Shown here in pieces: positions 1 through 64,000 of a stretch of 64,000 bases of DNA. A program made the translations under genes and the position numbers. How positions within the stretch are numbered: the first letter of the stretch is position 1; every line of letters begins with the position of its first letter. The notes under the pieces are model-generated. The model did no database searches and was not told the origin of the DNA. It was given only the letters and a program-made list of their open reading frames with translations. Source of the DNA: Inia geoffrensis. Lineage: Eukaryota; Chordata; Mammalia; Artiodactyla; Iniidae. The DNA lies in contig CM070899.1 in assembly GCA_036417435.1 (NCBI GenBank), forward strand, positions 150,116,237-150,180,236, in the 5' to 3' direction.

Positions 1-32
1 GACGCTCGACCACTGCGCCACCAGGGAAGCCC
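1..32 (-). mobile_element. CHR-type SINE, 5' end only (cut by window edge)
   Basis: The tRNA-related head of the minus-strand SINE is visible, including the A-box region and the characteristic terminal ccaccagggaagccc. It is followed by the target duplication gaaacactgctcttt at 33-47. Confidence 0.85.
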
Positions 33-485
33 GAAACACTGCTCTTTGAGGCACCATAGAGGAGCCTAGACATAATCACAGAACATGAGGTAAGTCGGAA
101 AGCAAAAGGCATATATCCTATGATATCACTTATAGGCGTCATCTAACAACTGACAAAAATGAACATATTTCCACAGAGAAAGGCACTCACAGACTAAGAA
201 AACAAACTACGCTTATCTAAAAGGAAAGGTGGCGGAATGGATAAATTAAGATCAGGGTTATCAAAAGTATACAAATACATATTAAATATACATATCAAAA
301 AGACCGACCATATAGCAAGGGAGGTCTACAGAACACTCTGCAATAATTTACATGGGAAGTGGATTTGTACATGAATATATATACATACATAGTACAAATG
401 AACCAGACTGTGTACACCTAAGACAAAAAATATTCTAATCGTTACCCGGGTTAAAAAACGTTAAAACATCGAACAACAAGTAACG
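1..485. repeat. Tail of subunit D of the preceding unit (unit 0, Type 1)
   Basis: This is the 3' part of a D subunit: the end of a SINE (1-32), the right copy of its target duplication (33-47), then degraded L1 3' UTR-like sequence up to the start of subunit A. It matches 4665-5149 of the next unit almost base for base, so the array continues to the left of the window. Confidence 0.93.
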
Positions 486-598
486 GACATAATCTTATGT
501 GGGGTTTTCCTGGCACATTCCATCCTAATTTACAACCTGGGAACATGACTTCCAGAAAGGCTCTGCTGCTCTAGTCATCAGATTTGGGAATGGAGAAA

Positions 599-617
599 TG
601 CTGCCGCCTTGTGGCCA
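599..617 (-). promoter_or_regulatory. CTCF-like motif, subunit A
   Basis: The plus strand reads TGCTGCCGCCTTGTGGCCA and the motif strand (minus) reads TGGCCACAAGGCGGCAGCA. Compared with the commonly cited core CCGCGNGGNGGCAG it matches except at the third and fifth positions, where the broader matrix also tolerates A. It contains one CpG. The match was made by eye; no score was computed and binding is not shown. Confidence 0.6.
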
Positions 618-717
618 TTTCGCACAATAGCAGCTTTAAACTCAGTGCTAATGGTCACTAAATATTCACACTCATTGCTGGCCTGTAAATGACACCTGCC
701 CTCAAAAAAAATCCTGG

Positions 718-732
718 GGTCGAAAATCGACC
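718..732. repeat. Short perfect inverted repeat in subunit A
   Basis: GGTCGAAAATCGACC has 6-base arms with a 3-base centre. It lies about 100 bp after the CTCF-like site. Subunit C has the counterpart GGTCGTATATCGACC at 2684-2698 with 5-base arms. It could be a dimeric-protein site or chance; no known factor is assigned. Confidence 0.5.
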
Positions 733-834
733 AAAAAATTCAAAAGAGGGCAACCTTCCGAGAAGACAATTTCAAGAGGTTTACTGTACTCACAGTTTTT
801 TTTTTTCTGTTTATCACAGATATAAAAAGGTGTG

Positions 835-1262
835 GAAAAATGCTGAACAGAATTATTAAAGACATGCAAATCCCAATTACAAAAACCTATCAGCTCACAC
901 CAGTCAGAATGGCCGTGAGCAAAATTTCTGCAAAAAATAAATTCTGTAGGGGCTGTGGAGAAATGCATACCCGCGGTTCAAACAGGAACATGGTAAGAGC
1001 CAGTAATGGAAACACAAACAAGGTGCCTTGAAAAGGTAAATATTGAGCTACCATTCAATCAGGCATACCCACTTCAGGGCCTATCGCCTCAGAGGATGAA
1101 AATGAAAAAGCCACAGGATAGCAATCCTGCACTCCAGCTATATTTACCATATCCAAGCTTTGGAAGCAAAGAAAATGTCCATCAACAGGGGAATGCACAA
1201 GGAAGAAGTGGTCCATGTACACAATGGCATATGGCTCCAATACCAAATATAAATTCAAATTA
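835..1262 (+). mobile_element. L1 3'-end fragment in subunit A (ORF2-derived, internally deleted)
   Basis: I recognise the order of short blocks typical of the end of mammalian L1 ORF2: an 'atgcaaat' block (864-871), 'ctcacaccagtcagaatggcc' (nearly intact), 'aaataaattctg..ggctgtggaga', and 'atgtccatcaacag..gaatg'. Frames are broken and it cannot encode an active protein. The 3' UTR part is missing. Boundaries are approximate. Confidence 0.75.
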
Positions 1263-1395
1263 AAAAACAAACATAAGTAAGGAGACATCAGCATTGGGTG
1301 GATTATCCGGGCACATTCCACTCTAATTTATAACCAAGGAACACCACTGGCAAGAAGGTCTGTCTCCCTTGTTACCAGAGTGGGGAAAGCAGAAA

Positions 1396-1414
1396 TGCTG
1401 CCGCCCTCTGGCCG
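1396..1414 (-). promoter_or_regulatory. CTCF-like motif, subunit B
   Basis: The motif strand reads CGGCCAGAGGGCGGCAGCA. The central CCAGAGGGCGGCAG is among the best matches in the unit to the CTCF core. Same orientation as in A, C and D. One CpG lies in the core and a second at the outer edge. Predicted by eye only. Confidence 0.65.
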
Positions 1415-1591
1415 TTACCTGCAACAGCAGCCTTAAGACCTGAGCTAAGGGTCACTTTATGTGCACAAGTACTGGAGGACTGTAAATGAACCTGCCCTCA
1501 AAATGTCTTGAGGGAGGTAATGCCCAAAATATTACAAATTGCAGCACATACTTCAGGAAAACGACATGAAGAGGTAAGCTGCACCCACAGA

Positions 1592-2440
1592 TTGAGGAAA
1601 AAACGGACATGCCTGAAAACTCAATTTCAAGGGGTTAGGAGACCCATGCAAATCCAACCACAAAGAGGTATCAGCTCACACCAGGCAGAATAAACATCAG
1701 AAAAAAACACAAACAGTAAATGCTGAAGGGGTTGTGGAGAAGGGCATACCCTCAACTTTAAGTGGGACGTAACCTGGTAAGAGCCACAAATGAGAACAGA
1801 ATGGACGTGCCGTTACAAGGTGAACATTGAGCTACCATATGATCCAGCAGGTCCACTCCTGGGCCTATAAGCTAAGAAGACAGATTTGGAAAGACACAGG
1901 CAGGCAAATCTGCATTGCAACTCTATTACAGTAGGCAAGACATGAAAGCAACCAAAACGTCCATCAACACATGAGTGGACAAAGAAGAACTGGTATATGT
2001 ACACACGGATATTAGCCAAGGAAAAAATGACACAATTCCATTTGCAGCACCATAGATGAGTCTAGGCGTAATCACGCAACTTATAGTTAGTCAGAAAGAG
2101 AAAGACACATATCCTAGGATATCACTTATCGGTGTTACCTAAAAATTGATACCAGTGAAGAGATTTCCACAGAGAAAGGCAATCACAGATTCATTAAACA
2201 AACTTATGGTTCACCAATGGAAAGGTGTGAGAGTTGGATACTTTAGGCTATTGTGGTTAAGACACATATACAAACACAGGTGAAGTATATAATCACCAAA
2301 GACCATGGGAAAAGGATGCCAGGAAGAATAGACACATGGATATGTGTAAAAGAACCACAGCTTGCACACGTACAACAAGCATAACATTGTAATCAAACTT
2401 GCTGTGATAAAAAAATAAAAATTAAATTAATAAAACGAAC
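1592..2440 (+). mobile_element. L1 3'-end fragment in subunit B (ORF2 end plus 3' UTR)
   Basis: L1-like blocks occur in the expected order: 'atgcaaatcca' (1646), 'tcagctcacaccaggcagaa', 'agtaaatgctgaaggggttgtggaga', 'gagctaccatatgatccagca', 'cactcctgggcctata', 'aaaacgtccatcaacacatgagtgga', 'agttagtcagaaagagaaa'. These are followed by a 3' UTR-like end with AATAAA. Multiple stops and small deletions show it is inactive. Start is approximate. Confidence 0.82.
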
Positions 2441-2564
2441 AACAAGCAGTGAGACATAAACTTAAGGCACTGTTTCCTGGCATCTTCCATTCCAATTTAC
2501 AGCCTACAACACGATTTCCATGGAGACTCTGTTGCCCTAGTAAACAGATTTTATAAAGGAGAAC

Positions 2565-2583
2565 TGCTGCCACATTGTGGCCG
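2565..2583 (-). promoter_or_regulatory. CTCF-like motif, subunit C (weakest of four)
   Basis: The motif strand reads CGGCCACAATGTGGCAGCA. The GGCAGCA end and CCAC start are kept, but the middle has T where the motif usually has G, and the CpG inside the core is lost. I regard it as a weaker candidate than A, B or D. Confidence 0.4.
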
Positions 2584-2683
2584 TTTCACACAACAGCAGC
2601 TTTAAACCCAGGGCTAATGGTCAGTTGATACTCAAAATAATTACAGGCCTGTAAATGACAACTGCCCTGAAAACAAATCCTGG

Positions 2684-2698
2684 GGTCGTATATCGACC
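2684..2698. repeat. Short inverted repeat in subunit C
   Basis: GGTCGTATATCGACC: arms GGTCG/CGACC around TATAT. It is the positional counterpart of the A-subunit palindrome and keeps the pairing arms although the centre differs. Confidence 0.45.
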
Positions 2699-2804
2699 AA
2701 AAAATTCAAGAGACATCCACAACTCAAAACGACAATTTCAAGAGGTCATTAATCACACACTTGTCTTCTCTTACTTTTTCTTTCTTTTTTTTTTTTGGTA
2801 AAAC

Positions 2805-3690
2805 AAATGGGAATGGGAAAATGCTTAACATCAGGAATTAATGAAGTCATGCAAATCCAATCTACAAAAACGTTCACCTCACAACCGTCAGAATGATCAT
2901 CATGCAAAAACGTGTATAAAGAATAAATGCTGAAGGGGTTTTAGAGAACGGCGTACCCTCTTGCTGCTGTTGGGATGTAACCTGGTAACAGCCAGTATTG
3001 AGAACAGAATGGAGGTGCATTGCAAGGTAAAAATTGAGCTACCATATGATCTGGTAGGCCCACTGTTGGGCCTATCTCCTGAATAGACTAGAATCAAAAA
3101 GGCACAGGCTGGCAATCCTGCACTCCAGCATCATGTACCATAGCCAAGAATTGGAAAAAACCAAAATGTCCATCAACAGATAAATGCACCAAAAAGAAGT
3201 GGTCCATGTACACAATGGAATATTAGCCAAGGAAAAGAATGAAACATTGCCGTTGGCACCACCATAGAAGGATCTAGAAATAATCAGCCCACTTGATCTA
3301 AGAAAGAACCCAAAAGACAGACATCCTATGACATCAGTTATAGGGGTTATCTAAATATTGAACCCATGAAATTATTTCCAAGAGAAGGACACACATGGAT
3401 TTAGAACACAAAAAATATATTTAACCACATGGAATGGTGTAAGGAACATATGAATTAGGATACGGGGGTTAGCAGACATGTACTAATACTTATGAAATAT
3501 ATAATCACAAAATACCTATGGAATACCAAGAGAGGCCTACTCCACACTCTGTAATGACCTACACGGGAAAGGATCCAAAGATGAATAGATCGATGCCTAG
3601 ATATAATGAACCAGATTCTGTACACCTAGAACACACACAATACTTTTATCAAATTTGCTCTGATAGTAAATAAAAATTAAATTTAAAACA
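2805..3690 (+). mobile_element. L1 3'-end fragment in subunit C
   Basis: L1-like order: 'aaaatgcttaacatcaggaa' and 'atgcaaatcca' (2849), 'gagctaccatatgatctggta', 'tccatcaacagataaatgca', 'gtacacaatggaatattagcc', then a 3' UTR-like stretch ending 'ctgtacacctagaacacacac' and an A-rich tail. This closely follows the canonical L1 end (acacctgaaactaacacaat type). Non-coding relic. Confidence 0.82.
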
Positions 3691-3816
3691 CAAGAAGTAA
3701 GGAGGTTTAAGCTCTTGGGGGTTTGCCCTGGCACATTTCTCTCGAATTTTAAGCCTGCTAACACAATTTCCAGGAAGGCTCTCTTGCCCCAAAACCCAGA
3801 TTTGGAAATGTAGGAA

Positions 3817-3835
3817 TGCTGCCGCCTTGTGGCCG
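3817..3835 (-). promoter_or_regulatory. CTCF-like motif, subunit D
   Basis: The motif strand reads CGGCCACAAGGCGGCAGCA, the same as A except for the first base. It is kept in every unit except unit 5, where two bases have changed, and it is retained at the edge of the deletion in the short units. Confidence 0.6.
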
Positions 3836-4338
3836 TTTCCCACTAAAGCGGCTTTAAACCCACAGCTAACAGTCACTGAACACTCACAAGGACTGAGGGC
3901 AGTAAAGGACACGTGACCTCAAAAAATGTCCTGGGCTGGGAATGGCCAAAAAAATTAAACACAGGCAAAGGTTTCAAGGAGATAGTATGAAGAGGCAAGT
4001 TTTACTCACTCTTTTTCCAAAAAAGAAAAATGGATAACAGCTCAACATCAGGAATTATTAGACTCATGCAAATGTAATTTACAAAAAGGATTCAACTCAC
4101 ACAAGTCAACTACCATCAGCAAAAAGTCAACAAACAATAAATGCCGAAGGGGTTTTAGAGAACTGCGTACCCTCTAACTGCTGGTGAGATGTAAAGTGGT
4201 AACAGCCCATAATGAGAACAGAAAGGAGTTGCATTTAAAAGTAAAAATTGAGCCAGCATTCCATCCAGCAGGGCCACCGCTGAGCCTCTCACCTGAGAAG
4301 ACCAGAGTCGAGAAGACCCAGGCTGCAACAGCTGCACT

Positions 4339-4350
4339 GCAGCCATTTTC
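4339..4350 (-). promoter_or_regulatory. YY1-like site in subunit D
   Basis: The minus strand reads GAAAATGGCTGC, close to the YY1 consensus AANATGGCGGC with one core-flank mismatch. It lies about 520 bp from the D CTCF-like site. The base context differs from ordinary L1 at this point, but chance is quite possible. Confidence 0.3.
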
Positions 4351-4466
4351 ACAATAGCCAAGACACGGAAGCAAGCAAAACGTCCATCAACACATGAATG
4401 GATAAAGAAGTGGTCTATGTACACAAAGGCATATTAACAATGGAAAACAATGAAACACTGCTCTTT

Positions 4467-4696
4467 TATTTTTATTTTTTTATTTTTTTTATTTTTATTT
4501 TTTAGCGGTACGCGGGCCTCTCACTGCTGTGGCCTCTCCCGCTGCGGAGCACAGGCTCCGGACGCTCAGGCTCAGTGGCCATGACTCACGGGCACAGCCG
4601 CTCCGCGGCATGTGGGATCCTCCCGGACCGGGGCACGAACCCGTGTCCCCTGCATCGGCAGGCAGACGCTCGACCACTGCGCCACCAGGGAAGCCC
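4467..4696 (-). mobile_element. CHR-type tRNA-derived SINE, unit 1 (230 bp)
   Basis: On the minus strand the element starts GGGCTTCCCTGGTGGCGCAG. It has an A box (TGGCGCAGTGG, plus-strand 4674-4684) and a B box (GGTTCGTGCCC, about 4631-4641), and ends in an A-rich tail seen here as T-rich 4467-4502. A 15-base target duplication gaaacactgctcttt flanks it at 4452-4466 and 4697-4711. The sequence matches my knowledge of cetacean CHR-2-like SINEs. Both RNA polymerase III boxes look intact. Confidence 0.9.
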
Positions 4697-5149
4697 GAAA
4701 CACTGCTCTTTGAGGCACCATAGAGGAGCCTAGACATAATCACAGAACATGAGGTAAGTCGGAAAGCAAAAGGCATATATCCTATGATATCACTTATAGG
4801 CGTCATCTAACAACTGACAAAAATGAACATATTTCCACAGAGAAAGGCACTCACAGACTAAGAAAACAAACTACGCTTATCTAAAAGGAAAGGTGGCGGA
4901 ATGGATAAATTAAGATCAGGGTTATCAAAAGTATACAAATACATATTAAATATACATATCAAAAAGACCGACCATATAGCAAGGGAGGTCTACAGAACAC
5001 TCTGCAATAATTTACATGGGAAGTGGATTTGTACATGAATATATATACATACATAGTACAAATGAACCAGACTGTGTACACCTAAGACAAAAAATATTCT
5101 AATCGTTACCCGGGTTAAAAAACGTTAAAACATCGAACAACAAGTAAGG

Positions 5150-8100
5150 GACATAATCTTATGTGGGGTTTTCCTGGCACATTCCATTCTAATTTACAAC
5201 CTGGGAACATGACTTCCAGAAAGGCTCTGCTGCTCTAGTCATCAGATTTGGGAATGGAGAAATGCTGCCGCCTTGTGGCCATTTCGCACAATAGCACCTT
5301 TAAACTCAGTGCTAATGGTCACTAAATATTCACACTCATTGCTGGCCTGTAAATGACACCTGCCCTCAAAAAAAATCCTGGGGTCGAAAATCGACCAAAA
5401 AATTCAAAAGAGGGCAACCTTCCGAGAAGACAATTTCAAGAGGTTTACTGTACTCACAGTTTTTTTTTCTCTTTATCACAGATATAAAAAGGTGTGGAAA
5501 AATGCTGAACAGAATTATTAAAGACATGCAAATCCCAATTACAAAAACCTATCAGCTCACACCAGTCAGAATGGCCGTGAGCAAAATTTCTGCAAAAAAT
5601 AAATTCTGTAGGGGCTGTGGAGAAATGCATACCCGCGGTTCAAACAGGAACATGGTAAGAGCCAGTAATGGAAACACAAACAAGGTGCCTTGAAAAGGTA
5701 AATATTGAGCTACCATTCAATCAGGCATACCCACTTCAGGGCCTATCGCCTCAGAGGATGAAAATGAAAAAGCCACAGGATAGCAATCCTGCACTCCAGC
5801 TATATTTACCATATCCAAGCTTTGGAAGCAAAGAAAATGTCCATCAACAGGGGAATGCACAAGGAAGAAGTGGTCCATGTACACAATGGCATATGGCTCC
5901 AATACCAAATATAAATTCAAATTAAAAAACAAACATAAGTAAGGAGACATCAGCATTGGGTGGATTATCCGGGCACATTCCACTCTAATTTATAACCAAG
6001 GAACACCACTGGCAAGAAGGTCTGTCTCCCTTGTTACCAGAGTGGGGAAAGCAGAAATGCTGCCGCCCTCTGGCCGTTACCTGCAACAGCAGCCTTAAGA
6101 CCTGAGCTAAGGGTCACTTTATGTGCACAAGTACTGGAGGACTGTAAATGAACCTGCCCTCAAAATGTCTTGAGGGAGGTAATGCCCAAAATATTACAAA
6201 TTGCAGCACATACTTCAGGAAAACGACATGAAGAGGTAAGCTGCACCCACAGATTGAGGAAAAAACGGACATGCCTGAAAACTCAATTTCAAGGGGTTAG
6301 GAGACCCATGCAAATCCAACCACAAAGAGGTATCAGCTCACACCAGGCAGAATAAACATCAGAAAAAAACACAAACAGTAAATGCTGAAGGGGTTGTGGA
6401 GAAGGGCATACCCTCAACTTTAAGTGGGACGTAACCTGGTAAGAGCCACAAATGAGAACAGAATGGACGTGCCGTTACAAGGTGAACATTGAGCTACCAT
6501 ATGATCCAGCAGGTCCACTCCTGGGCCTATAAGCTAAGAAGACAGATTTGGAAAGACACAGGCAGGCAAATCTGCATTGCAACTCTATTACAGTAGGCAA
6601 GACATGAAAGCAACCAAAACGTCCATCAACACATGAGTGGACAAAGAAGAACTGGTATATGTACACACGGATATTAGCCAAGGAAAAAATGACACAATTC
6701 CATTTGCAGCACCATAGATGAGTCTAGGCGTAATCACGCAACTTATAGTTAGTCAGAAAGAGAAAGACACATATCCTAGGATATCACTTATCGGTGTTAC
6801 CTAAAAATTGATACCAGTGAAGAGATTTCCACAGAGAAAGGCAATCACAGATTCATTAAACAAACTTATGGTTCACCAATGGAAAGGTGTGAGAGTTGGA
6901 TACTTTAGGCTATTGTGGTTAAGACACATATACAAACACAGGTGAAGTATATAATCACCAAAGACCATGGGAAAAGGATGCCAGGAAGAATAGACACATG
7001 GATATGTGTAAAAGAACCACAGCTTGCACACGTACAACAAGCATAACATTGTAATCAAACTTGCTGTGATAAAAAAATAAAAATTAAATTAATAAAACGA
7101 ACAACAAGCAGTGAGACATAAACTTAAGGCACTGTTTCCTGGCATCTTCCATTCCAATTTACAGCCTACAACACGATTTCCATGGAGACTCTGTTGCCCT
7201 AGTAAACAGATTTTATAAAGGAGAACTGCTGCCACATTGTGGCCGTTTCACACAACAGCAGCTTTAAACCCAGGGCTAATGGTCAGTTGATACTCAAAAT
7301 AATTACAGGCCTGTAAATGACAACTGCCCTGAAAACAAATCCTGGGGTCGTATATCGACCAAAAAATTCAAGAGACATCCACAACTCAAAACGACAATTT
7401 CAAGAGGTCATTAATCACACACTTGTCTTCTCTTACTTTTTCTTTCTTTTTTTTTTTTGGTAAAACAAATGGGAATGGGAAAATGCTTAACATCAGGAAT
7501 TAATGAAGTCATGCAAATCCAATCTACAAAAACGTTCACCTCACAACCGTCAGAATGATCATCATGCAAAAACGTGTATAAAGAATAAATGCTGAAGGGG
7601 TTTTAGAGAACGGCGTACCCTCTTGCTGCTGTTGGGATGTAACCTGGTAACAGCCAGTATTGAGAACAGAATGGAGGTGCATTGCAAGGTAAAAATTGAG
7701 CTACCATATGATCTGGTAGGCCCACTGTTGGGCCTATCTCCTGAATAGACTAGAATCAAAAAGGCACAGGCTGGCAATCCTGCACTCCAGCATCATGTAC
7801 CATAGCCAAGAATTGGAAAAAACCAAAATGTCCATCAACAGATAAATGCACCAAAAAGAAGTGGTCCATGTACACAATGGAATATTAGCCAAGGAAAAGA
7901 ATGAAACATTGCCGTTGGCACCACCATAGAAGGATCTAGAAATAATCAGCCCACTTGATCTAAGAAAGAACCCAAAAGACAGACATCCTATGACATCAGT
8001 TATAGGGGTTATCTAAATATTGAACCCATGAAATTATTTCCAAGAGAAGGACACACATGGATTTAGAACACAAAAAATATATTTAACCACATGGAATGGT

Positions 8101-9811
8101 GTAAGGAACATATGAATTAGGATACGGGGGTTAGCAGACATGTACTAATACTTATGAAATATATAATCACAAAATACCTATGGAATACCAAGAGAGGCCT
8201 ACTCCACACTCTGTAATGACCTACACGGGAAAGGATCCAAAGATGAATAGATCGATGCCTAGATATAATGAACCAGATTCTGTACACCTAGAACACACAC
8301 AATACTTTTATCAAATTTGCTCTGATAGTAAATAAAAATTAAATTTAAAACACAAGAAGTAAGGAGGTTTAAGCTCTTGGGGGTTTGCCCTGGCACATTT
8401 CTCTCGAATTTTAAGCCTGCTAACACAATTTCCAGGAAGGCTCTCTTGCCCCAAAACCCAGATTTGGAAATGTAGGAATGCTGCCGCCTTGTGGCCGTTT
8501 CCCACTAAAGCGGCTTTAAACCCACAGCTAACAGTCACTGAACACTCACAAGGACTGAGGGCAGTAAAGGACACGTGACCTCAAAAAATGTCCTGGGCTG
8601 GGAATGGCCAAAAAAATTAAACACAGGCAAAGGTTTCAAGGAGATAGTATGAAGAGGCAAGTTTTACTCACTCTTTTTCCAAAAAAGAAAAATGGATAAC
8701 AGCTCAACATCAGGAATTATTAGACTCATGCAAATGTAATTTACAAAAAGGATTCAACTCACACAAGTCAACTACCATCAGCAAAAAGTCAACAAACAAT
8801 AAATGCCGAAGGGGTTTTAGAGAACTGCGTACCCTCTAACTGCTGGTGAGATGTAAAGTGGTAACAGCCCATAATGAGAACAGAAAGGAGTTGCATTTAA
8901 AAGTAAAAATTGAGCCAGCATTCCATCCAGCAGGGCCACCGCTGAGCCTCTCACCTGAGAAGACCAGAGTCGAGAAGACCCAGGCTGCAACAGCTGCACT
9001 GCAGCCATTTTCACAATAGCCAAGACACGGAAGCAAGCAAAACGTCCATCAACACATGAATGGATAAAGAAGTGGTCTATGTACACAAAGGCATATTAAC
9101 AATGGAAAACAATGAAACACTGCTCTTTTATTTTTATTTTTTTATTTTTTTTATTTTTATTTTTTAGCGGTACGCGGGCCTCTCACTGCTGTGGCCTCTC
9201 CCGCTGCGGAGCACAGGCTCCGGACGCTCAGGCTCAGTGGCCATGACTCACGGGCACAGCCGCTCCGCGGCATGTGGGATCCTCCCGGACCGGGGCACGA
9301 ACCCGTGTCCCCTGCATCGGCAGGCAGACGCTCGACCACTGCGCCACCAGGGAAGCCCGAAACACTGCTCTTTGAGGCACCATAGAGGAGCCTAGACATA
9401 ATCACAGAACATGAGGTAAGTCGGAAAGCAAAAGGCATATATCCTATGATATCACTTATAGGCGTCATCTAACAACTGACAAAAATGAACATATTTCCAC
9501 AGAGAAAGGCACTCACAGACTAAGAAAACAAACTACGCTTATCTAAAAGGAAAGGTGGCGGAATGGATAAATTAAGATCAGGGTTATCAAAAGTATACAA
9601 ATACATATTAAATATACATATCAAAAAGACCGACCATATAGCAAGGGAGGTCTACAGAACACTCTGCAATAATTTACATGGGAAGTGGATTTGTACATGA
9701 ATATATATACATACATAGTACAAATGAACCAGACTGTGTACACCTAAGACAAAAAATATTCTAATCGTTACCCGGGTTAAAAAACGTTAAAACATCGAAC
9801 AACAAGTAAGG
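5150..9811. repeat. Unit 2, Type 1
   Basis: A 5150-5945, B 5946-7114, C 7115-8365, D 8366-9811. CTCF-like sites begin at 5263, 6058, 7227 and 8479. Differs from unit 1 by few bases, mainly a poly-T two bases shorter near 5460 and 'tctc' where unit 1 has 'tctg'. Confidence 0.92.
9129..9358 (-). mobile_element. CHR-type SINE, unit 2
   Basis: 230 bp, identical in layout to the unit 1 copy. Target duplications at 9114-9128 and 9359-9373 are the same 15 bases, so this copy came from repeat amplification and not from a new insertion. Confidence 0.9.
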
Positions 9812-12800
9812 GACATAATCTTATGTGGGGTTTTCCTGGCACATTCCATTCTAATTTACAACCTGGGAACATGACTTCCAGAAAGGCTCTGCTGCTCTAG
9901 TCATCAGATTTGGGAATGGAGAAATGCTGCCGCCTTGTGGCCATTTCGCACAATAGCACCTTTAAACTCAGTGCTAATGGTCACTAAATATTCACACTCA
10001 TTGCTGGCCTGTAAATGACACCTGCCCTCAAAAAAAATCCTGGGGTCGAAAATCGACCAAAAAATTCAAAAGAGGGCAACCTTCCGAGAAGACAATTTCA
10101 AGAGGTTTACTGTACTCACAGTTTTTTTTTTTCTGTTTATCACAGATATAAAAAGGTGTGGAAAAATGCTGAACAGAATTATTAAAGACATGCAAATCCC
10201 AATTACAAAAACCTATCAGCTCACACCAGTCAGAATGGCCGTGAGCAAAATTTCTGCAAAAAATAAATTCTGTAGGGGCTGTGGAGAAATGCATACCCGC
10301 GGTTCAAACAGGAACATGGTAAGAGCCAGTAATGGAAACACAAACAAGGTGCCTTGAAAAGGTAAATATTGAGCTACCATTCAATCAGGCATACCCACTT
10401 CAGGGCCTATCGCCTCAGAGGATGAAAATGAAAAAGCCACAGGATAGCAATCCTGCACTCCAGCTATATTTACCATATCCAAGCTTTGGAAGCAAAGAAA
10501 ATGTCCATCAACAGGGGAATGCACAAGGAAGAAGTGGTCCATGTACACAATGGCATATGGCTCCAATACCAAATATAAATTCAAATTAAAAAACAAACAT
10601 AAGTAAGGAGACATCAGCATTGGGTGGATTATCCGGGCACATTCCACTCTAATTTATAACCAAGGAACACCACTGGCAAGAAGGTCTGTCTCCCTTGTTA
10701 CCAGAGTGGGGAAAGCAGAAATGCTGCCGCCCTCTGGCCGTTACCTGCAACAGCAGCCTTAAGACCTGAGCTAAGGGTCACTTTATGTGCACAAGTACTG
10801 GAGGACTGTAAATGAACCTGCCCTCAAAATGTCTTGAGGGAGGTAATGCCCAAAATATTACAAATTGCAGCACATACTTCAGGAAAACGACATGAAGAGG
10901 TAAGCTGCACCCACAGATTGAGGAAAAAACGGACATGCCTGAAAACTCAATTTCAAGGGGTTAGGAGACCCATGCAAATCCAACCACAAAGAGGTATCAG
11001 CTCACACCAGGCAGAATAAACATCAGAAAAAAACACAAACAGTAAATGCTGAAGGGGTTGTGGAGAAGGGCATACCCTCAACTTTAACTGGGACGTAACC
11101 TGGTAAGAGCCACAAATGAGAACAGAATGGACGTGCCTTTACAAGGTGAACATTGAGCTACCATATGATCCAGCAGGTCCACTCCTGGGCCTATAAGCTA
11201 AGAAGACAGATTTGGAAAGACACAGGCAGGCAAATCTGCATTGCAACTCTATTACAGTAGGCAAGACATGAAAGCAACCAAAACGTCCATCAACACATGA
11301 GTGGACAAAGAAGAACTGGTATATGTACACACGGATATTAGCCAAGGAAAAAATGACACAATTCCATTTGCAGCACCATAGATGAGTCTAGGCGTAATCA
11401 CGCAACTTATAGTTAGTCAGAAAGAGAAAGACACATATCCTAGGATATCACTTATCGGTGTTACCTAAAAATTGATACCAGTGAAGAGATTTCCACAGAG
11501 AAAGGCAATCACAGATTCATTAAACAAACTTATGGTTCACCAATGGAAAGGTGTGAGAGTTGGATACTTTAGGCTATTGTGGTTAAGACACATATACAAA
11601 CACAGGTGAAGTATATAATCACCAAAGACCATGGGAAAAGGATGCCAGGAAGAATAGACACATGGATATGTGTAAAAGAACCACAGCTTGCACACGTACA
11701 ACAAGCATAACATTGTAATCAAACTTGCTGTGATAAAAAAATAAAAATTAAATTAATAAAACGAACAACAAGCAGTGAGACATAAACTTAAGGCACTGTT
11801 TCCTGGCATCTTCCATTCCAATTTACAGCCTACAACACGATTTCCATGGAGACTCTGTTGCCCTAGTAAACAGATTTTATAAAGGAGAACTGCTGCCACA
11901 TTGTGGCCGTTTCACACAACAGCAGCTTTAAACCCAGGGCTAATGGTCAGTTGATACTCAAAATAATTACAGGCCTGTAAATGACAACTGCCCTGAAAAC
12001 AAATCCTGGGGTCGTATATCGACCAAAAAATTCAAGAGACATCCACAACTCAAAACGACAATTTCAAGAGGTCATTATACACACATTTGTCTTCTCTTAC
12101 TTTTTCTTTCTTTTTTTTTTTTGGTAAAACAAATGGGAATGGGAAAATGCTTAACATCAGGAATTAATGAAGTCTTGCAAATCCAATCTACAAAAACGTT
12201 CACCTCACAACCGTCAGAATGATCATCATGCAAAAACGTGTATAAAGAATAAATGCTGAAGGGGTTTTAGAGAACGGCGTACCCTCTTGCTGCTGTTGGG
12301 ATGTAACCTGGTAACAGCCAGTATTGAGAACAGAATGGAGGTGCATTGCAAGGTAAAAATTGAGCTACCATATGATCTGGTAGGCCCACTGTTGGGCCTA
12401 TCTCCTGAATAGACTAGAATCAAAAAGGCACAGGCTGGCAATCCTGCACTCCAGCATCATGTACCATAGCCAAGAATTGGAAAAAACCAAAATGTCCATC
12501 AACAGATAAATGCACCAAAAAGAAGTGGTCCATGTACACAATGGAATATTAGCCAAGGAAAAGAATGAAACATTGCCGTTGGCACCACCATAGAAGGATC
12601 TAGAAATAATCAGCCCACTTGATCTAAGAAAGAACCCAAAAGACAGACATCCTATGACATCAGTTATAGGGGTTATCTAAATATTGAACCCATGAAATTA
12701 TTTCCAAGAGAAGGACACACATGGATTTAGAACACAAAAAATATATTTAACCACATGGAATGGTGTAAGGAACATATGAATTAGGATACGGGGGTTAGCA

Positions 12801-14475
12801 GACATGTACTAATACTTATGAAATATATAATCACAAAATACCTATGGAATACCAAGAGAGGCCTACTCCACACTCTGTAATGACCTACACGGGAAAGGAT
12901 CCAAAGATGAATAGGTCGATGCCTAGATATAATGAACCAGATTCTGTACACCTAGAACACACACAATACTTTTATCAAATTTGCTCTGATAGTAAATAAA
13001 AATTAAATTTAAAACACAAGAAGTAAGGAGGTTTAAGCTCTTGGGGGTTTGCCCTGGCACATTTCTCTCGAATTTTAAGCCTGCTAACACAATTTCCAGG
13101 AAGGCTCTCTTGCCCCAAAACCCAGATTTGGAAATGTAGGAATGCTGCCGCCTTGTGGCCGTTTCCCACTAAAGCGGCTTTAAACCCACAGCTAACAGTC
13201 ACTGAACACTCACAAGGACTGAGGGCAGTAAAGGACACGTGACCTCAAAAAATGTCCTGGGCTGGGAATGGCCAAAAAAATTAAACACAGGCAAAGGTTT
13301 CAAGGAGATAGTATGAAGAGGCAAGTTTTACTCACTCTTTTTCCAAAAAAGAAAAATGGATAACAGCTCAACATCAGGAATTATTAGACTCATGCAAATG
13401 TAATTTACAAAAAGGATTCAACTCACACAAGTCAACTACCATCAGCAAAAAGTCAACAAACAATAAATGCCGAAGGGGTTTTAGAGAACTGCGTACCCTC
13501 TAACTGCTGGTGAGATGTAAAGTGGTAACAGCCCATAATGAGAACAGAAAGGAGTTGCATTTAAAAGTAAAAATTGAGCCAGCATTCCATCCAGCAGGGC
13601 CACCGCTGAGCCTCTCACCTGAGAAGACCAGAGTCGAGAAGACCCAGGCTGCAACAGCTGCACTGCAGCCATTTTCACAATAGCCAAGACACGGAAGCAA
13701 GCAAAACGTCCATCAACACATGAATGGATAAAGAAGTGGTCTATGTACACAAAGGCATATTAACAATGGAAAACAATGAAACACTGCTCTTTTATTTTTA
13801 TTTTTTTATTTTTTTTATTTTTATTTTTTAGCGGTACGCGGGCCTCTCACTGCTGTGGCCTCTCCCGCTGCGGAGCACAGGCTCCGGACGCTCAGGCTCA
13901 GTGGCCATGACTCACGGGCACAGCCGCTCCGCGGCATGTGGGATCCTCCCGGACCGGGGCACGAACCCGTGTCCCCTGCATCGGCAGGCAGACGCTCGAC
14001 CACTGCGCCACCAGGGAAGCCCGAAACACTGCTCTTTGAGGCACCATAGAGGAGCCTAGACATAATCACAGAACATGAGGTAAGTCGGAAAGCAAAAGGC
14101 ATATATCCTATGATATCACTTATAGGCGTCATCTAACAACTGACAAAAATGAACATATTTCCACAGAGAAAGGCACTCACAGACTAAGAAAACAAACTAC
14201 GCTTATCTAAAACGAAAGGTGGCGGAATGGATAAATTAAGATCAGGGTTATCAAAAGTATACAAATACATATTAAATATACATATCAAAAAGACCGACCA
14301 TATAGCAAGGGAGGTCTACAGAACACTCTGCAATAATTTACATGGGAAGTGGATTTGTACATGAATATATATACATACATAGTACAAATGAACCAGACTG
14401 TGTACACCTAAGACAAAAAATATTCTAATCGTTACCCGGGTTAAAAAACGTTAAAACATCGAACAACAAGTAAGG
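9812..14475. repeat. Unit 3, Type 1
   Basis: A 9812-10609, B 10610-11778, C 11779-13029, D 13030-14475. CTCF-like sites begin at 9925, 10722, 11891 and 13143. The L1-derived octamer in C is changed to TTGCAAAT (12175-12182). Its C subunit shares 'ataggtcgatgcc' (near 12912) and 'cattatacacacattt' with unit 5 but not with units 1, 2 or 4. Confidence 0.92.
13793..14022 (-). mobile_element. CHR-type SINE, unit 3
   Basis: 230 bp with the common target duplication on both sides (13778-13792, 14023-14037). Confidence 0.9.
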
Positions 14476-22468: not shown

Positions 22469-22487
22469 TGCTGCCGCCTCGTCGCCG
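22469..22487 (-). promoter_or_regulatory. Disrupted CTCF-like motif, unit 5 subunit D
   Basis: The plus strand reads TGCTGCCGCCTCGTCGCCG. Relative to all other D copies two bases differ (T to C and G to C), changing the highly constrained CCAC part of the motif. It is the only copy in the window with damage at that end. Confidence 0.6.
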
Positions 22488-29152: not shown

Positions 29153-30221
29153 TTTCCTGCAACAGCAGCCTTAAGACCTGAGCTAAGGGTCACTTTATGT
29201 GCACAAGTACTGGAGGACTGTAAATGAACCTCCCCTCAAAATGTCTTGAGGGAGGTAATGCCCAAAATATTACAAATTGCAGCACATACTTCAGGAAAAT
29301 GACATGAAGAGGTAAGCTGCACCCACAGATTGAGGAAAAAACGGACATGCCTGAAAACTCAATTTCAAGGGGTTAGGAGACCCATGCAAATCCAACCACA
29401 AAGAGGTATCAGCTCACACCAGGCAGAATAAACATCAGAAGAAACCACAAACAGTAAATGCTGAAGGGGTTGTGGAGAAGGGCATACCCTCAACTTTAAG
29501 TGGGACGTAACCTGGTAAGAGCCGCAAATGAGAACAGAATGGACGTGCCTTTACAAGGTGAACATTGAGCTACCATATGACCCAGCAGGCCCACTCCTGG
29601 GCCTATAAGCTAAGAAGACAGATTTGGAAAGACACAGGCAGGCAAATCTGCATTGCAACTCTATTACAGTAGCCAAGACATGAAAGCAACCAAAACATCC
29701 ATCAACACGTGAGTGGACAAAGAAGAACTGGTATATGTACACACGGATATTAGCCAAGGAAAAAATGACACAATTCCATTTGCAGCACCATAGATGAGTC
29801 TAGACGTAATCACGCAACTTGTAGTTAGTCAGAAAGAGAAAGACACATATCCTAGGATATCACTTATAGGTGTTACCTCAAAATTGATACCAGTGAAGAG
29901 ATTTCCACAGAGAAAGGCAATCACGGATTCATTAAACAAACTTATGGTTCACCAATGGAAAGGTGTGAGAATTGGATACTTTAGGCTCTTGTGGTTAAGA
30001 CACATGTACAAACAGAGGTGAAGTATATAATCACCAAAGACCATGGGAAAAGGATCCCAGGAAGAAAAGACACATGGATATGTGTAAAAGAACCACATCT
30101 TGCACACGTACCACAAGCATAACATTGTAATCAAACTTGCTGTGATAAAAAAATAAAAATTAAATTAATAAAACGAACAACAAGCAGCGAGACATAAACT
30201 GAAGGCACTGTTTCCTGGCAT

Positions 30222-30234
30222 CTTCCAGGAAGAT
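30222..30234. other. C/D deletion junction, unit 7
   Basis: C sequence '..ctggcatcttcca' runs directly into 'ggaagatgctgccgcc' of D. 'ttcca' and 'ggaa' are shared by C and D near the breakpoints, so a microhomology or unequal-exchange origin is plausible. The junction is identical in units 11 and 12. Confidence 0.75.
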
Positions 30235-30867
30235 GCTGCCGCCTTGTGGCCGTTTCCCGCTAAAGCGGCTTTAAACCCACAGCTAACAGTCACTTAACAC
30301 TCACAAGGACTCAGGGCAGTAAAGGACACGTGACCTCAAAAAATGTCCTGGGCTGGGAATGGCCAAAAAAATTAAACACAGGCAAAGGTTTCAAGGAGAT
30401 AGTATGAAGAGGCAAGTTTTACTCACTCTTTCTCCAAAAAAGAAAAATGGATAACAGCTCAACATCAGGGATTATTAGACTCATGCAAATCTAATTTACA
30501 AAAAGGATTCAACTCACACAATCAACTACCATCCGCAAAAAGTCAACAAACAATAAATGCCGAAGGGGTTTTAGAGAACTGCGTACCCTCTAACTGCTGG
30601 TGAGATGTAAAGTGGTAACAGCCCATAATGAGAACAGAAAGGAGTTGCATTTAAAAGTACAAATTAAGCCAGCATTCCATCCAGCAGGGCCACCGCTGAG
30701 CTTCTCACCTGAGAAGACCAGAGTCGAGAAGACCCAGGCTGCAACAGCCGCACTGCAGCCATTTTCACAATAGCCAAGACACGGAAGCAAGCAAAACGTC
30801 CATCAACACGTGAATGGATAAAGAAGTGGTCTATGTACACAAAGCCATATTAACAATGGACAACAAT

Positions 30868-43322: not shown

Positions 43323-43955
43323 GCTGCCGCCTTGTGGCCGTTTCCCGCTAAAGCGGCTTTAAACCCACAGCTAACAGTCACTTAACACTCACAAGGACTC
43401 AGGGCAGTAAAGGACACGTGACCTCAAAAAATGTCCTGGGCTGGGAATGGCCAAAAAAATTAAACACAGGCAAAGGTTTCAAGGAGATAGTATGAAGAGG
43501 CAAGTTTTACTCACTCTTTCTCCAAAAAAGAAAAATGGATAACAGCTCAACATCAGGGATTATTAGACTCATGCAAATCTAATTTAAAAAAAGGATTCAA
43601 CTCACACAATCAACTACCATCCGCAAAAAGTCAACAAACAATAAATGCCGAAGGGGTTTTAGAGAACTGCGTACCCTCTAACTGCTGGTGAGATGTAAAG
43701 TGGTAACAGCCCATAATGAGAACAGAAAGGAGTTGCATTTAAAAGTACAAATTAAGCCAGCATTCCATCCAGCAGGGCCACCGCTGAGCTTCTCACCTGA
43801 GAAGACCAGAGTCGAGAAGACCCAGGCTGCAACAGCCGCACTGCAGCCATTTTCACAATAGCCAAGACACGGAAGCAAGCAAAACGTCCATCAACACGTG
43901 AATGGATAAAGAAGTGGTCTATGTACACAAAGCCATATTAACAACGGAAAACAAT

Positions 43956-46405: not shown

Positions 46406-46418
46406 CTTCCAGGAAGAT
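46406..46418. other. C/D deletion junction, unit 12
   Basis: Same fusion as in units 7 and 11; the D CTCF-like site starts at once after it. Confidence 0.75.
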
Positions 46419-47051
46419 GCTGCCGCCTTGTGGCCGTTTCCCGCTAAAGCGGCTTTAAACCCACAGCTAACAGTCACTTAACACTCACAAGGACTCAGGG
46501 CAGTAAAGGACACGTGACCTCAAAAAATGTCCTGGGCTGGGAATGGCCAAAAAAATTAAACACAGGCAAAGGTTTCAAGGAGATAGTATGAAGAGGCAAG
46601 TTTTACTCACTCTTTCTCCAAAAAAGAAAAATGGATAACAGCTCAACATCAGGGATTATTAGACTCATGCAAATCTAATTTAAAAAAAGGATTCAACTCA
46701 CACAATCAACTACCATCCGCAAAAAGTCAACAAACAATAAATGCCGAAGGGGTTTTAGAGAACTGCGTACCCTCTAACTGCTGGTGAGATGTAAAGTGGT
46801 AACAGCCCATAATGAGAACAGAAAGGAGTTGCATTTAAAAGTACAAATTAAGCCAGCATTCCATCCAGCAGGGCCACCGCTGAGCTTCTCACCTGAGAAG
46901 ACCAGAGTCGAGAAGACCCAGGCTGCAACAGCCGCACTGCAGCCATTTTCACAATAGCCAAGACACGGAAGCAAGCAAAACGTCCATCAACACGTGAATG
47001 GATAAAGAAGTGGTCTATGTACACAAAGCCATATTAACAACGGAAAACAAT

Positions 47052-59800: not shown

Positions 59801-61471
59801 AGCAGACATGTACTAATACTTATGAAATATATAATCACAAAATACCTATGGAATACCAAGAGAGGCCTACTCCACACTCTGTAATGACCTACACGGGAAA
59901 GGATCCAAAGATGAATAGATCGATGCCTAGATATAATGAACCAGATTCTGTACACCTAGAACACACACAATACTTTTATCAAATTTGCTCTGATAGTAAA
60001 TAAAAATTAAATTTAAAACACAAGAAGTAAGGAGGTTTAAGCTCTTGGGGGTTTGCCCTGGCACATTTCTCTCGAATTTTAAGCCTGCTAACACAATTTC
60101 CAGGAAGGCTCTCTTGCCCCAAAACCCAGATTTGGAAATGTAGGAATGCTGCCGCCTTGTGGCCGTTTCCCACTAAAGCGGCTTTAAACCCACAGCTAAC
60201 AGTCACTGAACACTCACAAGGACTGAGGGCAGTAAAGGACACGTGACCTCAAAAAATGTCCTGGGCTGGGAATGGCCAAAAAAATTAAACACAGGCAAAG
60301 GTTTCAAGGAGATAGTATGAAGAGGCAAGTTTTACTCACTCTTTTTCCAAAAAAGAAAAATGGATAACAGCTCAACATCAGGAATTATTAGACTCATGCA
60401 AATGTAATTTACAAAAAGGATTCAACTCACACAAGTCAACTACCATCAGCAAAAAGTCAACAAACAATAAATGCCGAAGGGGTTTTAGAGAACTGCGTAC
60501 CCTCTAACTGCTGGTGAGATGTAAAGTGGTAACAGCCCATAATGAGAACAGAAAGGAGTTGCATTTAAAAGTAAAAATTGAGCCAGCATTCCATCCAGCA
60601 GGGCCACCGCTGAGCCTCTCACCTGAGAAGACCAGAGTCGAGAAGACCCAGGCTGCAACAGCTGCACTGCAGCCATTTTCACAATAGCCAAGACACGGAA
60701 GCAAGCAAAACGTCCATCAACACATGAATGGATAAAGAAGTGGTCTATGTACACAAAGGCATATTAACAATGGAAAACAATGAAACACTGCTCTTTTATT
60801 TTTATTTTTTTTATTTTTATTTTTTAGCGGTACGCGGGCCTCTCACTGCTGTGGCCTCTCCCGCTGCGGAGCACAGGCTCCGGACGCTCAGGCTCAGTGG
60901 CCATGACTCACGGGCACAGCCGCTCCGCGGCATGTGGGATCCTCCCGGACCGGGGCACGAACCCGTGTCCCCTGCATCGGCAGGCAGACGCTCGACCACT
61001 GCGCCACCAGGGAAGCCCGAAACACTGCTCTTTGAGGCACCATAGAGGAGCCTAGACATAATCACAGAACATGAGGTAAGTCGGAAAGCAAAAGGCATAT
61101 ATCCTATGATATCACTTATAGGCGTCATCTAACAACTGACAAAAATGAACATATTTCCACAGAGAAAGGCACTCACAGACTAAGAAAACAAACTACGCTT
61201 ATCTAAAAGGAAAGGTGGCGGAATGGATAAATTAAGATCAGGGTTATCAAAAGTATACAAATACATATTAAATATACATATCAAAAAGACCGACCATATA
61301 GCAAGGGAGGTCTACAGAACACTCTGCAATAATTTACATGGGAAGTGGATTTGTACATGAATATATATACATACATAGTACAAATGAACCAGACTGTGTA
61401 CACCTAAGACAAAAAATATTCTAATCGTTACCCGGGTTAAAAAACGTTAAAACATCGAACAACAAGTAACG
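56816..61471. repeat. Unit 15, Type 1 (with conversion-like patch)
   Basis: A 56816-57612, B 57613-58781, C 58782-60033, D 60034-61471. CTCF-like sites begin at 56929, 57725, 58894 and 60147. Within B, about 58626-58660 carries the Type 3 bases 'ggatcccaggaagaaaag', whereas flanking bases are Type 1. Confidence 0.92.
60797..61018 (-). mobile_element. CHR-type SINE, unit 15 (222 bp)
   Basis: Short-tail form. Target duplication at 60782-60796 and 61019-61033. Confidence 0.9.
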
Positions 61472-64000
61472 GACATAATCTTATGTGGGGTTTTCCTGGC
61501 ACATTCCATTCTAATTTACAACCTGGGAACATGACTTCCAGAAAGGCTCTGCTGCTCTAGTCATCAGATTTGGGAATGGAGAAATGCTGCCGCCTTGTGG
61601 CCATTTCGCACAATAGCACCTTTAAACTCAGTGCTAATGGTCACTAAATATTCACACTCATTGCTGGCCTGTAAATGACACCTGCCCTCAAAAAAAATCC
61701 TGGGGTCGAAAATCGACCAAAAAATTCAAAAGAGGGCAACCTTCCGAGAAGACAATTTCAAGAGGTTTACTGTACTCACAGTTTTTTTTTTCTGTTTATC
61801 ACAGATATAAAAAGGTGTGGAAAAATGCTGAACAGAATTATTAAAGACATGCAAATCCCAATTACAAAAACCTATCAGCTCACACCAGTCAGAATGGCCG
61901 TGAGCAAAATTTCTGCAAAAAATAAATTCTGTAGGGGCTGTGGAGAAATGCATACCCGCGGTTCAAACAGGAACATGGTAAGAGCCAGTAATGGAAACAC
62001 AAACAAGGTGCCTTGAAAAGGTAAATATTGAGCTACCATTCAATCAGGCATACCCACTTCAGGGCCTATCGCCTCAGAGGATGAAAATGAAAAAGCCACA
62101 GGATAGCAATCCTGCACTCCAGCTATATTTACCATATCCAAGCTTTGGAAGCAAAGAAAATGTCCATCAACAGGGGAATGCACAAGGAAGAAGTGGTCCA
62201 TGTACACAATGGCATATGGCTCCAATACCAAATATAAATTCAAATTAAAAAACAAACATAAGTAAGGAGACATCAGCATTGGGTGGATTATCCGGGCACA
62301 TTCCACTCTAATTTATAACCAAGGAACACCACTGGCAAGAAGGTCTGTCTCCCTTGTTACCAGAGTGGGGAAAGCAGAAATGCTGCCGCCCTCTGGCCGT
62401 TACCTGCAACAGCAGCCTTAAGACCTGAGCTAAGGGTCACTTTATGTGCACAAGTACTGGAGGACTGTAAATGAACCTGCCCTCAAAATGTCTTGAGGGA
62501 GGTAATGCCCAAAATATTACAAATTGCAGCATATACTTCAGGAAAACGATATGAAGAGGTAAGCTGCATCCACAGATTGAGGAAAAAACGGACATGCCTG
62601 AAAACTCAATTTCAAGGGGTTAGGAGACCCATGCAAATCCAACCACAAAGAGGTATCAGCTCACACCAGGCAGAATAAACATCAGAAAAAAACACAAACA
62701 GTAAATGCTGAAGGGGTTGTGGAGAAGGGCATACCCTCAACTTTAAGTGGGACGTAACCTGGTAAGAGCCACAAATGAGAACAGAATGGACGTGCCGTTA
62801 CAAGGTGAACATTGAGCTACCATATGATCCAGCAGGTCCACTCCTGGGCCTATAAGCTAAGAAGACAGATTTGGAAAGACACAGGCAGGCAAATCTGCAT
62901 TGCAACTCTATTACAGTAGGCAAGACATGAAAGCAACCAAAACGTCCATCAACACATGAGTGGACAAAGAAGAACTGGTATATGTACACACGGATATTAG
63001 CCAAGGAAAAAATGACACAATTCCATTTGCAGCACCATAGATGAGTCTAGGCGTAATCACGCAACTTATAGTTAGTCAGAAAGAGAAAGACACATATCCT
63101 AGGATATCACTTATCGGTGTTACCTAAAAATTGATACCAGTGAAGAGATTTCCACAGAGAAAGGCAATCACAGATTCATTAAACAAACTTATGGTTCACC
63201 AATGGAAAGGTGTGAGAATTGGATACTTTAGGCTATTGTGGTTAAGACACATATACAAACACAGGTGAAGTATATAATCACCGAAGACCATGGGAAAAGG
63301 ATGCCAGGAAGAATAGACACATGGATATGTGTAAAAGAACCACAGCTTGCACACGTACAACAAGCATAACATTGTAATCAAACTTGCTGTGATAAAAAAA
63401 TAAAAATTAAATTAATAAAACGAACAACAAGCAGTGAGACATAAACTTAAGGCACTGTTTCCTGGCATCTTCCATTCCAATTTACAGCCTACAACACGAT
63501 TTCCATGGAGACTCTGTTGCCCTAGTAAACAGATTTTATAAAGGAGAACTGCTGCCACATTGTGGCCGTTTCACACAACAGCAGCTTTAAACCCAGGGCT
63601 AATGGTCAGTTGATACTCAAAATAATTACAGGCCTGTAAATGACAACTGCCCTGAAAACAAATCCTGGGGTCGTATATCGACCAAAAAATTCAAGAGACA
63701 TCCACAACTCAAAACGACAATTTCAAGAGGTCATTAATCACACATTTGTCTTCTCTTACTTTTTCTTTCTTTTTTTTTTTTTGGTAAAACAAATGGGAAT
63801 GGGAAAATGCTTAACATCAGGAATTAATGAAGTCATGCAAATCCAATCTACAAAAACGTTCACCTCACAACCGTCAGAATGATCATCATGCAAAAACGTG
63901 TATAAAGAATAAATGCTGAAGGGGTTTTAGAGAACGGCGTACCCTCTTGCTGCTGTTGGGATGTAACCTGGTAACAGCCAGTATTGAGAACAGAATGGAG
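61472..64000. repeat. Unit 16, partial (cut by window end)
   Basis: A 61472-62268, B 62269-63437, C from 63438 to the window end. CTCF-like sites begin at 61585, 62381 and 63550. The sequence follows unit 14 closely, so the array continues to the right. The SINE site is outside the window. Confidence 0.92.

What the first reader, a model, noticed from the sequence alone, without database searches (positions are those of the whole stretch)
1..64000. Every subunit of the macrosatellite carries a co-oriented CTCF-like site
I find 57 copies of one 19-base element, about 112 bases into each subunit, at spacings of about 0.8, 1.17, 1.25 and 1.2-1.4 kb, always with the motif on the minus strand. Across A, B, C and D, 14 of the 19 positions are identical, and the differences mostly fall where the CTCF matrix is tolerant. 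The reverse complement (for example CGGCCAGAGGGCGGCAGCA) is a good CTCF-core match. From established knowledge, DXZ4 and ICCE on the eutherian X are macrosatellites whose sequence is not conserved but whose co-oriented CTCF motifs are, and they anchor inactive-X superloops. This array may be a cetacean element of that class or an independent one. Caveat: a nearby 29-base stretch is also about 59% invariant across the four subunits, so the excess conservation is modest by my count.
Basis: partly seen in the sequence, partly recalled or inferred. Interest (0 to 1): 0.87.

Follow-up and report, generated by a model that had tools for sequence, protein, structure and literature searches.

The report
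LINE-1-tail satellite studded with CTCF sites

Summary
All 57 elements are there, all on the minus strand. None of 2000 column-permuted matrices does as well across the four subunit types.

The array consists of LINE-1 tails: subunit A matches human L1 ORF2p (E 2.7e-7). Reviews give this make-up for the common cetacean satellite. It is not DXZ4: the 34-bp DXZ4 CTCF signature is absent, and dolphin DXZ4 is reported as homologous to human DXZ4. An ICCE identity and the chromosome could not be tested; the genome search did not complete.

Evidence for past use is mixed. For: of 29 aligned CpG columns, only the two inside the site are kept in three or more types, and four-way survival is unlikely without constraint (P 0.002-0.11 over the settings tried). 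Against: within-type variation is not reduced, the variable positions are not the tolerant ones, and co-orientation follows from tandem duplication.

Verdict: a real inherited CTCF-class site in an L1-derived, probably cetacean array; binding likely but untested; X-superloop role unsupported.

The parts
1..64000 (+). Higher-order tandem array; 57 subunits of types A, B, C, D, all head to tail in one orientation; 200-N assembly gap at 33058-33257
481..5144 (+). One complete higher-order unit A-B-C-D with SINE (period about 4.66 kb)
481..820 (+). Subunit A head: non-L1 block carrying the CTCF-like site (borders approximate, set by eye)
1278..1620 (+). Subunit B head (borders approximate)
2446..2800 (+). 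Subunit C head (borders approximate)
3701..4010 (+). Subunit D head (borders approximate)
816..971 (+). LINE-1 ORF2 C-terminal piece in subunit A (matches residues 1089-1138 of a human L1 ORF2p chain)
   Evidence: E 2.7e-7; the same block aligns in B, C and D
821..1277 (+). L1 tail of subunit A, shortened (most of the 3' part missing)
1621..2445 (+). L1 tail of subunit B (ORF2 end and 3' region, A-rich end)
   Evidence: by alignment to A
2801..3700 (+). L1 tail of subunit C
   Evidence: by alignment to A
4011..5144 (+). L1 tail of subunit D, interrupted by the SINE
4467..4696 (-). SINE insertion in D (CHR-type, name recalled), flanked by 15-bp target-site duplications 4452-4466 and 4697-4711; present in 8 of 14 D subunits, absent in 6
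30184..30427 (+). C/D fusion head; the D part begins at the edge of the motif; same fusion at 43272-43515 and 46368-46611
599..617 (-). CTCF-like site, A, 17.33 bits (the same 19-mer in all 15 A: also 5263, 9925, 14589, 19252, 23915, 28334, 31435, 37004, 41423, 44523, 47619, 52273, 56929, 61585)
1396..1414 (-). CTCF-like site, B, 11.29 bits (12 of 16 B: also 6058, 10722, 15385, 20048, 24710, 33380, 37799, 48414, 53069, 57725, 62381)
2565..2583 (-). CTCF-like site, C, 13.33 bits (12 of 12 C: also 7227, 11891, 16554, 21217, 25879, 34549, 38968, 49583, 54238, 58894, 63550)
3817..3835 (-). CTCF-like site, D, 16.67 bits (13 of 14 D: also 8479, 13143, 17806, 27132, 30234, 35802, 40221, 43322, 46418, 50835, 55491, 60147)
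22469..22487 (-). Degraded CTCF-like site in a D subunit, 3.38 bits
29134..29152 (-). Degraded B site, 5.10 bits; others at 32230 (5.10), 42222 (5.75) and 45318 (same 19-mer as 29134)

Best explanation
This is a higher-order tandem array of LINE-1-tail subunits in which 52 of 57 subunits carry one CTCF-consensus site on the minus strand, and the array is likely bound by CTCF in at least some cells and would then act as a dense one-sided barrier to loop extrusion. Shown: the array, the L1 origin of the tail, the sites, their match quality, and CpGs kept in three or more types only inside the site. Inferred: a single ancestral unit (a head of about 340 bp with a canonical CTCF site plus a 5'-truncated L1 tail) was tandemly duplicated, diverged into A-D, and was amplified again as ABCD. 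By the convergent-motif rule (established, not tested here) minus-strand sites would stop cohesin arriving from lower coordinates, so loops would extend towards the left of the window. CTCF occupancy in the germline would explain why the CpGs inside the site escaped methylation decay. It is probably a relative of the common cetacean satellite, not DXZ4.
For: 52 of 57 sites score at least 11.29 bits, all on one strand; best non-overlapping site 5.94. 0 of 2000 column-permuted matrices reach the observed minimum (11.29) or mean (14.65) over A-D; the best permuted values were 10.55 and 13.20. At the head's own rate (0.187 minority letters per site) all four would stay at or above 11.29 bits with P 0.004-0.03; over all rates and ancestors tried the range is 0.002-0.11. 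The conserved block coincides with the site within 2 bp: head windows with at most 5 minority letters start only at columns 117-121, 203, 205 and 206 (8 of 303). CpG columns kept in at least 3 of 4 types: 2 of 2 in the site, 0 of 27 elsewhere, whereas other dinucleotides are kept at 25-39%. L1 tail: E 2.7e-7 to L1 ORF2p. Macrosatellites with a CTCF site in each unit are a published kind (DXZ4, passages; the 1q23.3 tRNA array, abstract).
Against: Within-type variation in the site (7 of 1026 letters) is not clearly lower than in flanks (147 of 17319) (54 of 57 copies, the three C/D fusions left out). Variable positions include 9 and 10, among the most informative of the matrix; three of four types carry the disfavoured C at position 12 and all four a disfavoured A at position 8; mean information is higher at the 5 variable positions (1.04 bits) than at the 14 invariant ones (0.85) (arithmetic). 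5 of 57 sites are degraded. 62 of 705 windows are as invariant as the site, and 18 of 705 have as few minority letters, 10 of these in the L1 tail. CpG depletion (o/e 0.37) suggests methylated, probably silent chromatin, in which CTCF is often excluded. No occupancy data. The simulations assume a star tree, and CTCF was chosen after the motif was seen.
Confidence: 0.45

Rival explanations
1. Fossil site: the founding unit happened to carry a CTCF site, and the array copies it passively; the array is constitutive heterochromatin and CTCF is not bound in normal cells.
For: Co-orientation and number follow from tandem duplication alone. Within-type variation is not reduced, degraded copies exist (four B copies share one change), and high-information positions have changed. 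Common cetacean satellite is described as heterochromatin (paper title and review passages).
Against: Survival in all four types has P 0.004-0.03 at the head's own rate and 0.002-0.11 over all settings; CpG retention in three or more types is confined to the site.
Confidence: 0.4
2. X-linked superloop anchor of the DXZ4/ICCE class: the array is on the cetacean X and folds the inactive X.
For: Tandem organisation with one CTCF site per subunit in one orientation; ICCE sequence is not conserved between mammals (recalled).
Against: The DXZ4 34-bp signature is absent; dolphin DXZ4 is reported and is homologous to human DXZ4 (passage, data not shown there); AT-rich and CpG-poor; YY1-type patterns (recalled) absent in A, B and C and seen once in D, outside the head. 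Location unknown.
Confidence: 0.05
3. The conserved 19-mer serves another zinc-finger protein or the testis paralogue CTCFL/BORIS, active only in the germline.
For: Changes fall at CTCF-critical positions while the block as a whole is conserved, and CpG retention needs only germline occupancy. CTCFL is described as binding repeats (title and start of abstract of PMC5007689 in a listing).
Against: The CTCF matrix beats all 2000 permuted matrices; no independent evidence for another factor; no other factor's matrix was scanned.
Confidence: 0.1

Closest known systems
Common cetacean satellite (L1-derived; Kapitonov et al. 1998, Widegren et al. 1985; seen only as reference entries and in review passages)
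   Same: Tandem array whose unit is similar to the 3' end of LINE-1.
   Different: The published killer-whale unit is 1,579 bp (title); here subunits are 0.8-1.25 kb (without the SINE) in a 4.66-kb four-part unit, with a head of about 340 bp in which I found no L1. No monomer sequence was available for direct comparison, and no CTCF site is mentioned in the passages I read.
DXZ4 macrosatellite (PMC3491370 and PMC8662614, passages)
   Same: Macrosatellite with a CTCF site per unit; a single reverse-oriented site per unit in cat repeat A and in human.
   Different: Lacks the 34-bp signature, is AT-rich and CpG-poor, built from L1; dolphin DXZ4 is reported as human-like.
ICCE repeat (Westervelt and Chadwick 2018; title only; content recalled)
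   Same: Large tandem repeat with CTCF motifs, sequence not conserved between mammals (recalled).
   Different: Location in NBDY untested; no DXZ4-like motif and no shared YY1 pattern found here.
tRNA tandem repeat at human 1q23.3 (PMC4041453, abstract)
   Same: Autosomal macrosatellite whose units bind CTCF, and whose CTCF site outlives most of the sequence.
   Different: GC-rich 7.3-kb units with tRNA genes; occupancy is shown there, not here.

Membership tests
DXZ4 macrosatellite | 34-bp CTCF signature drawn from 25 mammals | tested here: not met
   Best match 16 mismatches of 34 in window 1-28000, both strands; five shuffles reach 13-15; the IUPAC form gives 7 mismatches, shuffles 6-7
DXZ4 macrosatellite | Location between PLS3 and AGTR2 on X | not testable with these tools
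   No flank in the window; the genome search not answered
DXZ4 macrosatellite | Tandem array with CTCF site in each unit | tested here: met
   52 of 57 subunits with a site of at least 11.29 bits
DXZ4 macrosatellite | GC-rich, CpG-island-like unit (primates; not mouse) | tested here: not met
   GC 0.39-0.43 in 2-kb windows, CpG o/e 0.37
ICCE repeat | Location in an NBDY intron (recalled) | not testable with these tools
   No flanking sequence
ICCE repeat | CTCF and YY1 motifs, CTCF motif resembling that of DXZ4 (recalled) | tested here: inconclusive
   CTCF present; DXZ4-like 34-mer absent; YY1-type patterns absent in A, B, C and once in D
Common cetacean satellite | Monomer derived from the L1 3' end | tested here: met
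   L1 ORF2p residues 1089-1138, E 2.7e-7 from subunit A; B-D by alignment; the D piece alone and Pfam scans of four pieces found nothing relevant
Common cetacean satellite | Unit of 1,579 bp (killer whale) | tested here: not met
   Subunits 0.8, 1.17, 1.25 and 1.2 kb (D without SINE); higher-order unit 4.66 kb
Common cetacean satellite | Sequence identity with published monomers | not testable with these tools
   No eukaryotic sequence collection on hand
Functional CTCF array | CTCF occupancy in cells | not testable with these tools
   No ChIP, methylation or Hi-C data

The most novel reading that the evidence does not exclude
A whole L1-tail satellite family of whales is a CTCF-site reservoir: each monomer kept a CTCF site since before the A-D split, its CpGs shielded by germline occupancy, so that cetacean chromosomes carry long one-way CTCF walls made from mobile-element debris, autosomal counterparts of DXZ4 that arose independently.
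Probability: 0.2. Interest if true: 0.75.

Novelty: new variant of a known kind. Interest (0 to 1): 0.4.

Why it matters
If the sites are bound, a satellite made from LINE-1 tails would show that CTCF arrays of the DXZ4 type can arise repeatedly from mobile-element debris, possibly outside the X chromosome, and that satellites can act on genome folding. The contrast between CpGs kept inside the site and lost elsewhere would be a sequence record of germline binding that can be tested with cetacean methylation and CTCF data. If they are not bound, the array is a good warning: dozens of perfectly co-oriented CTCF motifs can be a plain by-product of tandem duplication.

Tried and rejected
DXZ4 identity was rejected by the missing 34-bp signature and by the reported dolphin DXZ4. 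Co-orientation as evidence was rejected because tandem duplication forces it. Raw invariance as evidence was rejected: 62 of 705 windows match it. Reduced variation among copies was looked for and not found. A structured-RNA role was not pursued: Rfam gave 0 matches at gathering thresholds. Inverted repeats in window 1-14000: the 25 longest of 63 pairs are A/T-rich arms only. Pfam found nothing in four L1 pieces, and the D piece found only chance matches in the PDB. No paper in the held library has 'CTCF', 'cetacean' and 'satellite DNA' together; 'cetacean' with 'macrosatellite' gave one review, and the passages seen describe no such array; further searches for cetacean satellites listed reviews and unrelated papers, of which I read passages of three (20, 39, 40) and found no sequence.
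Full report
What is there. The 64-kb window is one head-to-tail array with no flank on either side. I cut it at the conserved site and found 57 subunits of four types: 15 A, 16 B, 12 C, 14 D. The main higher-order unit is A-B-C-D, 4.66 kb with a SINE in D and 4.42 kb without. Three units are A-B-(C/D fusion), where the D part starts at the edge of the site and 69 bases of head are missing by spacing. An assembly gap of 200 N lies at 33058-33257, so copy number and order there are uncertain. Copies of one type are 97.7-99.5% identical on average (55 of 57 copies, one B with N and one cut C left out), whereas the consensus sequences of A-D are 63-77% identical pairwise (JC distance 0.28-0.51, head or L1 part).

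What it is made of. Each subunit has a head of about 340 bases and a LINE-1 tail; the border was set by eye. The tail is shown by a match of subunit A to residues 1089-1138 of human L1 ORF2p (E 2.7e-7); B, C and D align to the same block. The D piece by itself gave no L1 match, and Pfam gave none for four pieces, as expected for decayed fragments. The origin of the head is unknown. Eight of 14 D subunits hold a SINE of 222-230 bases between perfect 15-base duplications, and six carry the 15-mer once, as an empty site; the window also starts inside a ninth SINE copy. I recognise the SINE as CHR-type, which points to cetaceans or close relatives; that name is recalled. Reviews state that the common cetacean satellite is similar to the L1 3' end (PMC9659126, passage; PMC6947457, table line and reference; original paper by title only). 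Unit length differs from the 1,579 bp of the killer whale (title), and I had no monomer to compare, so kinship is likely but untested.

The CTCF-like site. The next scores, 6.75 and 6.31, are shifted registers of B sites, and the best non-overlapping site is 5.94. Degraded are four B copies and one D copy. By chance 64 kb would hold 0.03-0.10 sites of 17.33 bits but 1.3-3.3 of 11.29 bits, so A and D are the strong matches. In 500 dinucleotide shuffles of one unit the best score averaged 8.81 and reached 17.33 once. Of 2000 column-permuted matrices none reached the observed minimum or mean over the four aligned subunits. So the site is a real CTCF-class motif, most simply present in the common ancestor of A-D. 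The 57 copies count as about four lineages, not 57 observations, and their common orientation is forced by tandem duplication.

Was it kept for a reason? Four results speak for it. First, if each copy had drifted at the rate of the rest of the head (0.188 minority letters per site, against 0.066 in the site and 0.151 in the L1 part), all four would still score 11.29 or more with P 0.004 (majority ancestor), 0.006 (A-like ancestor) or 0.03 (better-scoring supposed ancestor). Over all rates tried (0.14-0.20) the range is 0.002-0.11. Second, in the head only two blocks have as few minority letters, and one coincides with the site within 2 bases (8 of 303 head windows, the site's own included); the L1 part has 10 more such windows, so 18 of 705 over all. 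Third, of 29 CpG columns in the part aligned in all four types, the only two kept in three types are the two in the site; outside it is 0 of 27, while other dinucleotides are kept in three or more at 25-39%. CpG decay is the mark of germline methylation (established knowledge), so the site seems to have been spared. Fourth, the DXZ4 consensus, whose array is bound by CTCF (passages), itself scores only 3.66 bits with this matrix and allows C or T at position 12, so the C at position 12 here need not prevent binding.

Other results speak against it. Among copies of one type the site varies about as much as its flanks (7 of 1026 letters against 147 of 17319; 54 of 57 copies, the three fusions left out). 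The five variable positions include positions 9 and 10, where B and C carry damaging bases, three of four types carry the disfavoured C at 12, and the variable positions are on average more informative (1.04 bits) than the invariant ones (0.85); selection for CTCF binding would predict the reverse. And 18 of 19 dinucleotides in the site are kept in three subunits or more against 417 of 682 outside, so CpG retention partly follows from general conservation of the block. The star-tree simulation is simple, and CTCF was named after the motif had been seen. I read this as likely past occupancy with weak or no present constraint.

DXZ4 and ICCE. The 34-base DXZ4 signature is missing: best match 16 mismatches in the first 28 kb, five shuffles 13-15 (the rest of the window is further copies and fusions of the same subunits). 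Dolphin is listed among mammals whose DXZ4 units show substantial homology to human DXZ4 (PMC3491370, passage, there as data not shown). The window is 39-43% GC with CpG o/e 0.37. It is therefore not DXZ4. ICCE cannot be excluded, because its sequence is not conserved (recalled) and the location is unknown; no DXZ4-like motif and no shared YY1 pattern was found.

How it would work. Minus-strand CTCF sites stop cohesin that arrives from lower coordinates and anchor loops extending to that side (established convergent rule, not tested). An array of dozens of such sites would be a strong one-way barrier, if it is unmethylated and bound. Whether it is, no tool here can tell.

Age. JC distances of 0.28-0.51 between types would, at slow cetacean rates (recalled), predate living cetaceans. 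This is inference, as satellites can evolve faster; orthologues in hippopotamus and ruminants would decide it.

Verdict. Observation confirmed; CTCF-like nature supported; DXZ4 rejected; X-superloop role unsupported. Most likely an L1-tail satellite related to the common cetacean satellite, with an inherited and possibly functional CTCF site per subunit.

Noticed in passing
4452-4711 and 7 further D subunits; absent in 6 D subunits with sites at 27132, 30234, 35802, 40221, 43322, 46418: A SINE with perfect 15-bp target-site duplications is present in the outer higher-order units and absent from the middle ones, so the array is a mosaic of two lineages of the unit.
   Followed up: yes
30184-30427, 43272-43515, 46368-46611: Three C/D fusion heads, identical around the junction, with 69 bases missing by spacing; the junction lies at the very edge of the CTCF-like site, leaving it intact.
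   Followed up: partly
33058-33257: Gap of 200 N between two B subunits (B-N-B), probably a scaffold join inside the array; copy number is uncertain.
   Followed up: no
alignment columns 203-225, about 80 bases from the site (for example window 680-703): A second conserved block in the head (GGCCTGTAAATGACACCTGCCCTC in A), the only head block besides the CTCF-like site with as few minority letters; no factor assigned.
   Followed up: partly
1571-1580 (B head): The B head holds GAGGTAAGCT, which resembles a splice donor; the same place differs in A, C and D. Origin of the head is unknown.
   Followed up: no
821-1277 and the other A subunits: A subunits lack most of the L1 3' region that B, C and D keep, which makes them about 0.8 kb long.
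   Followed up: no
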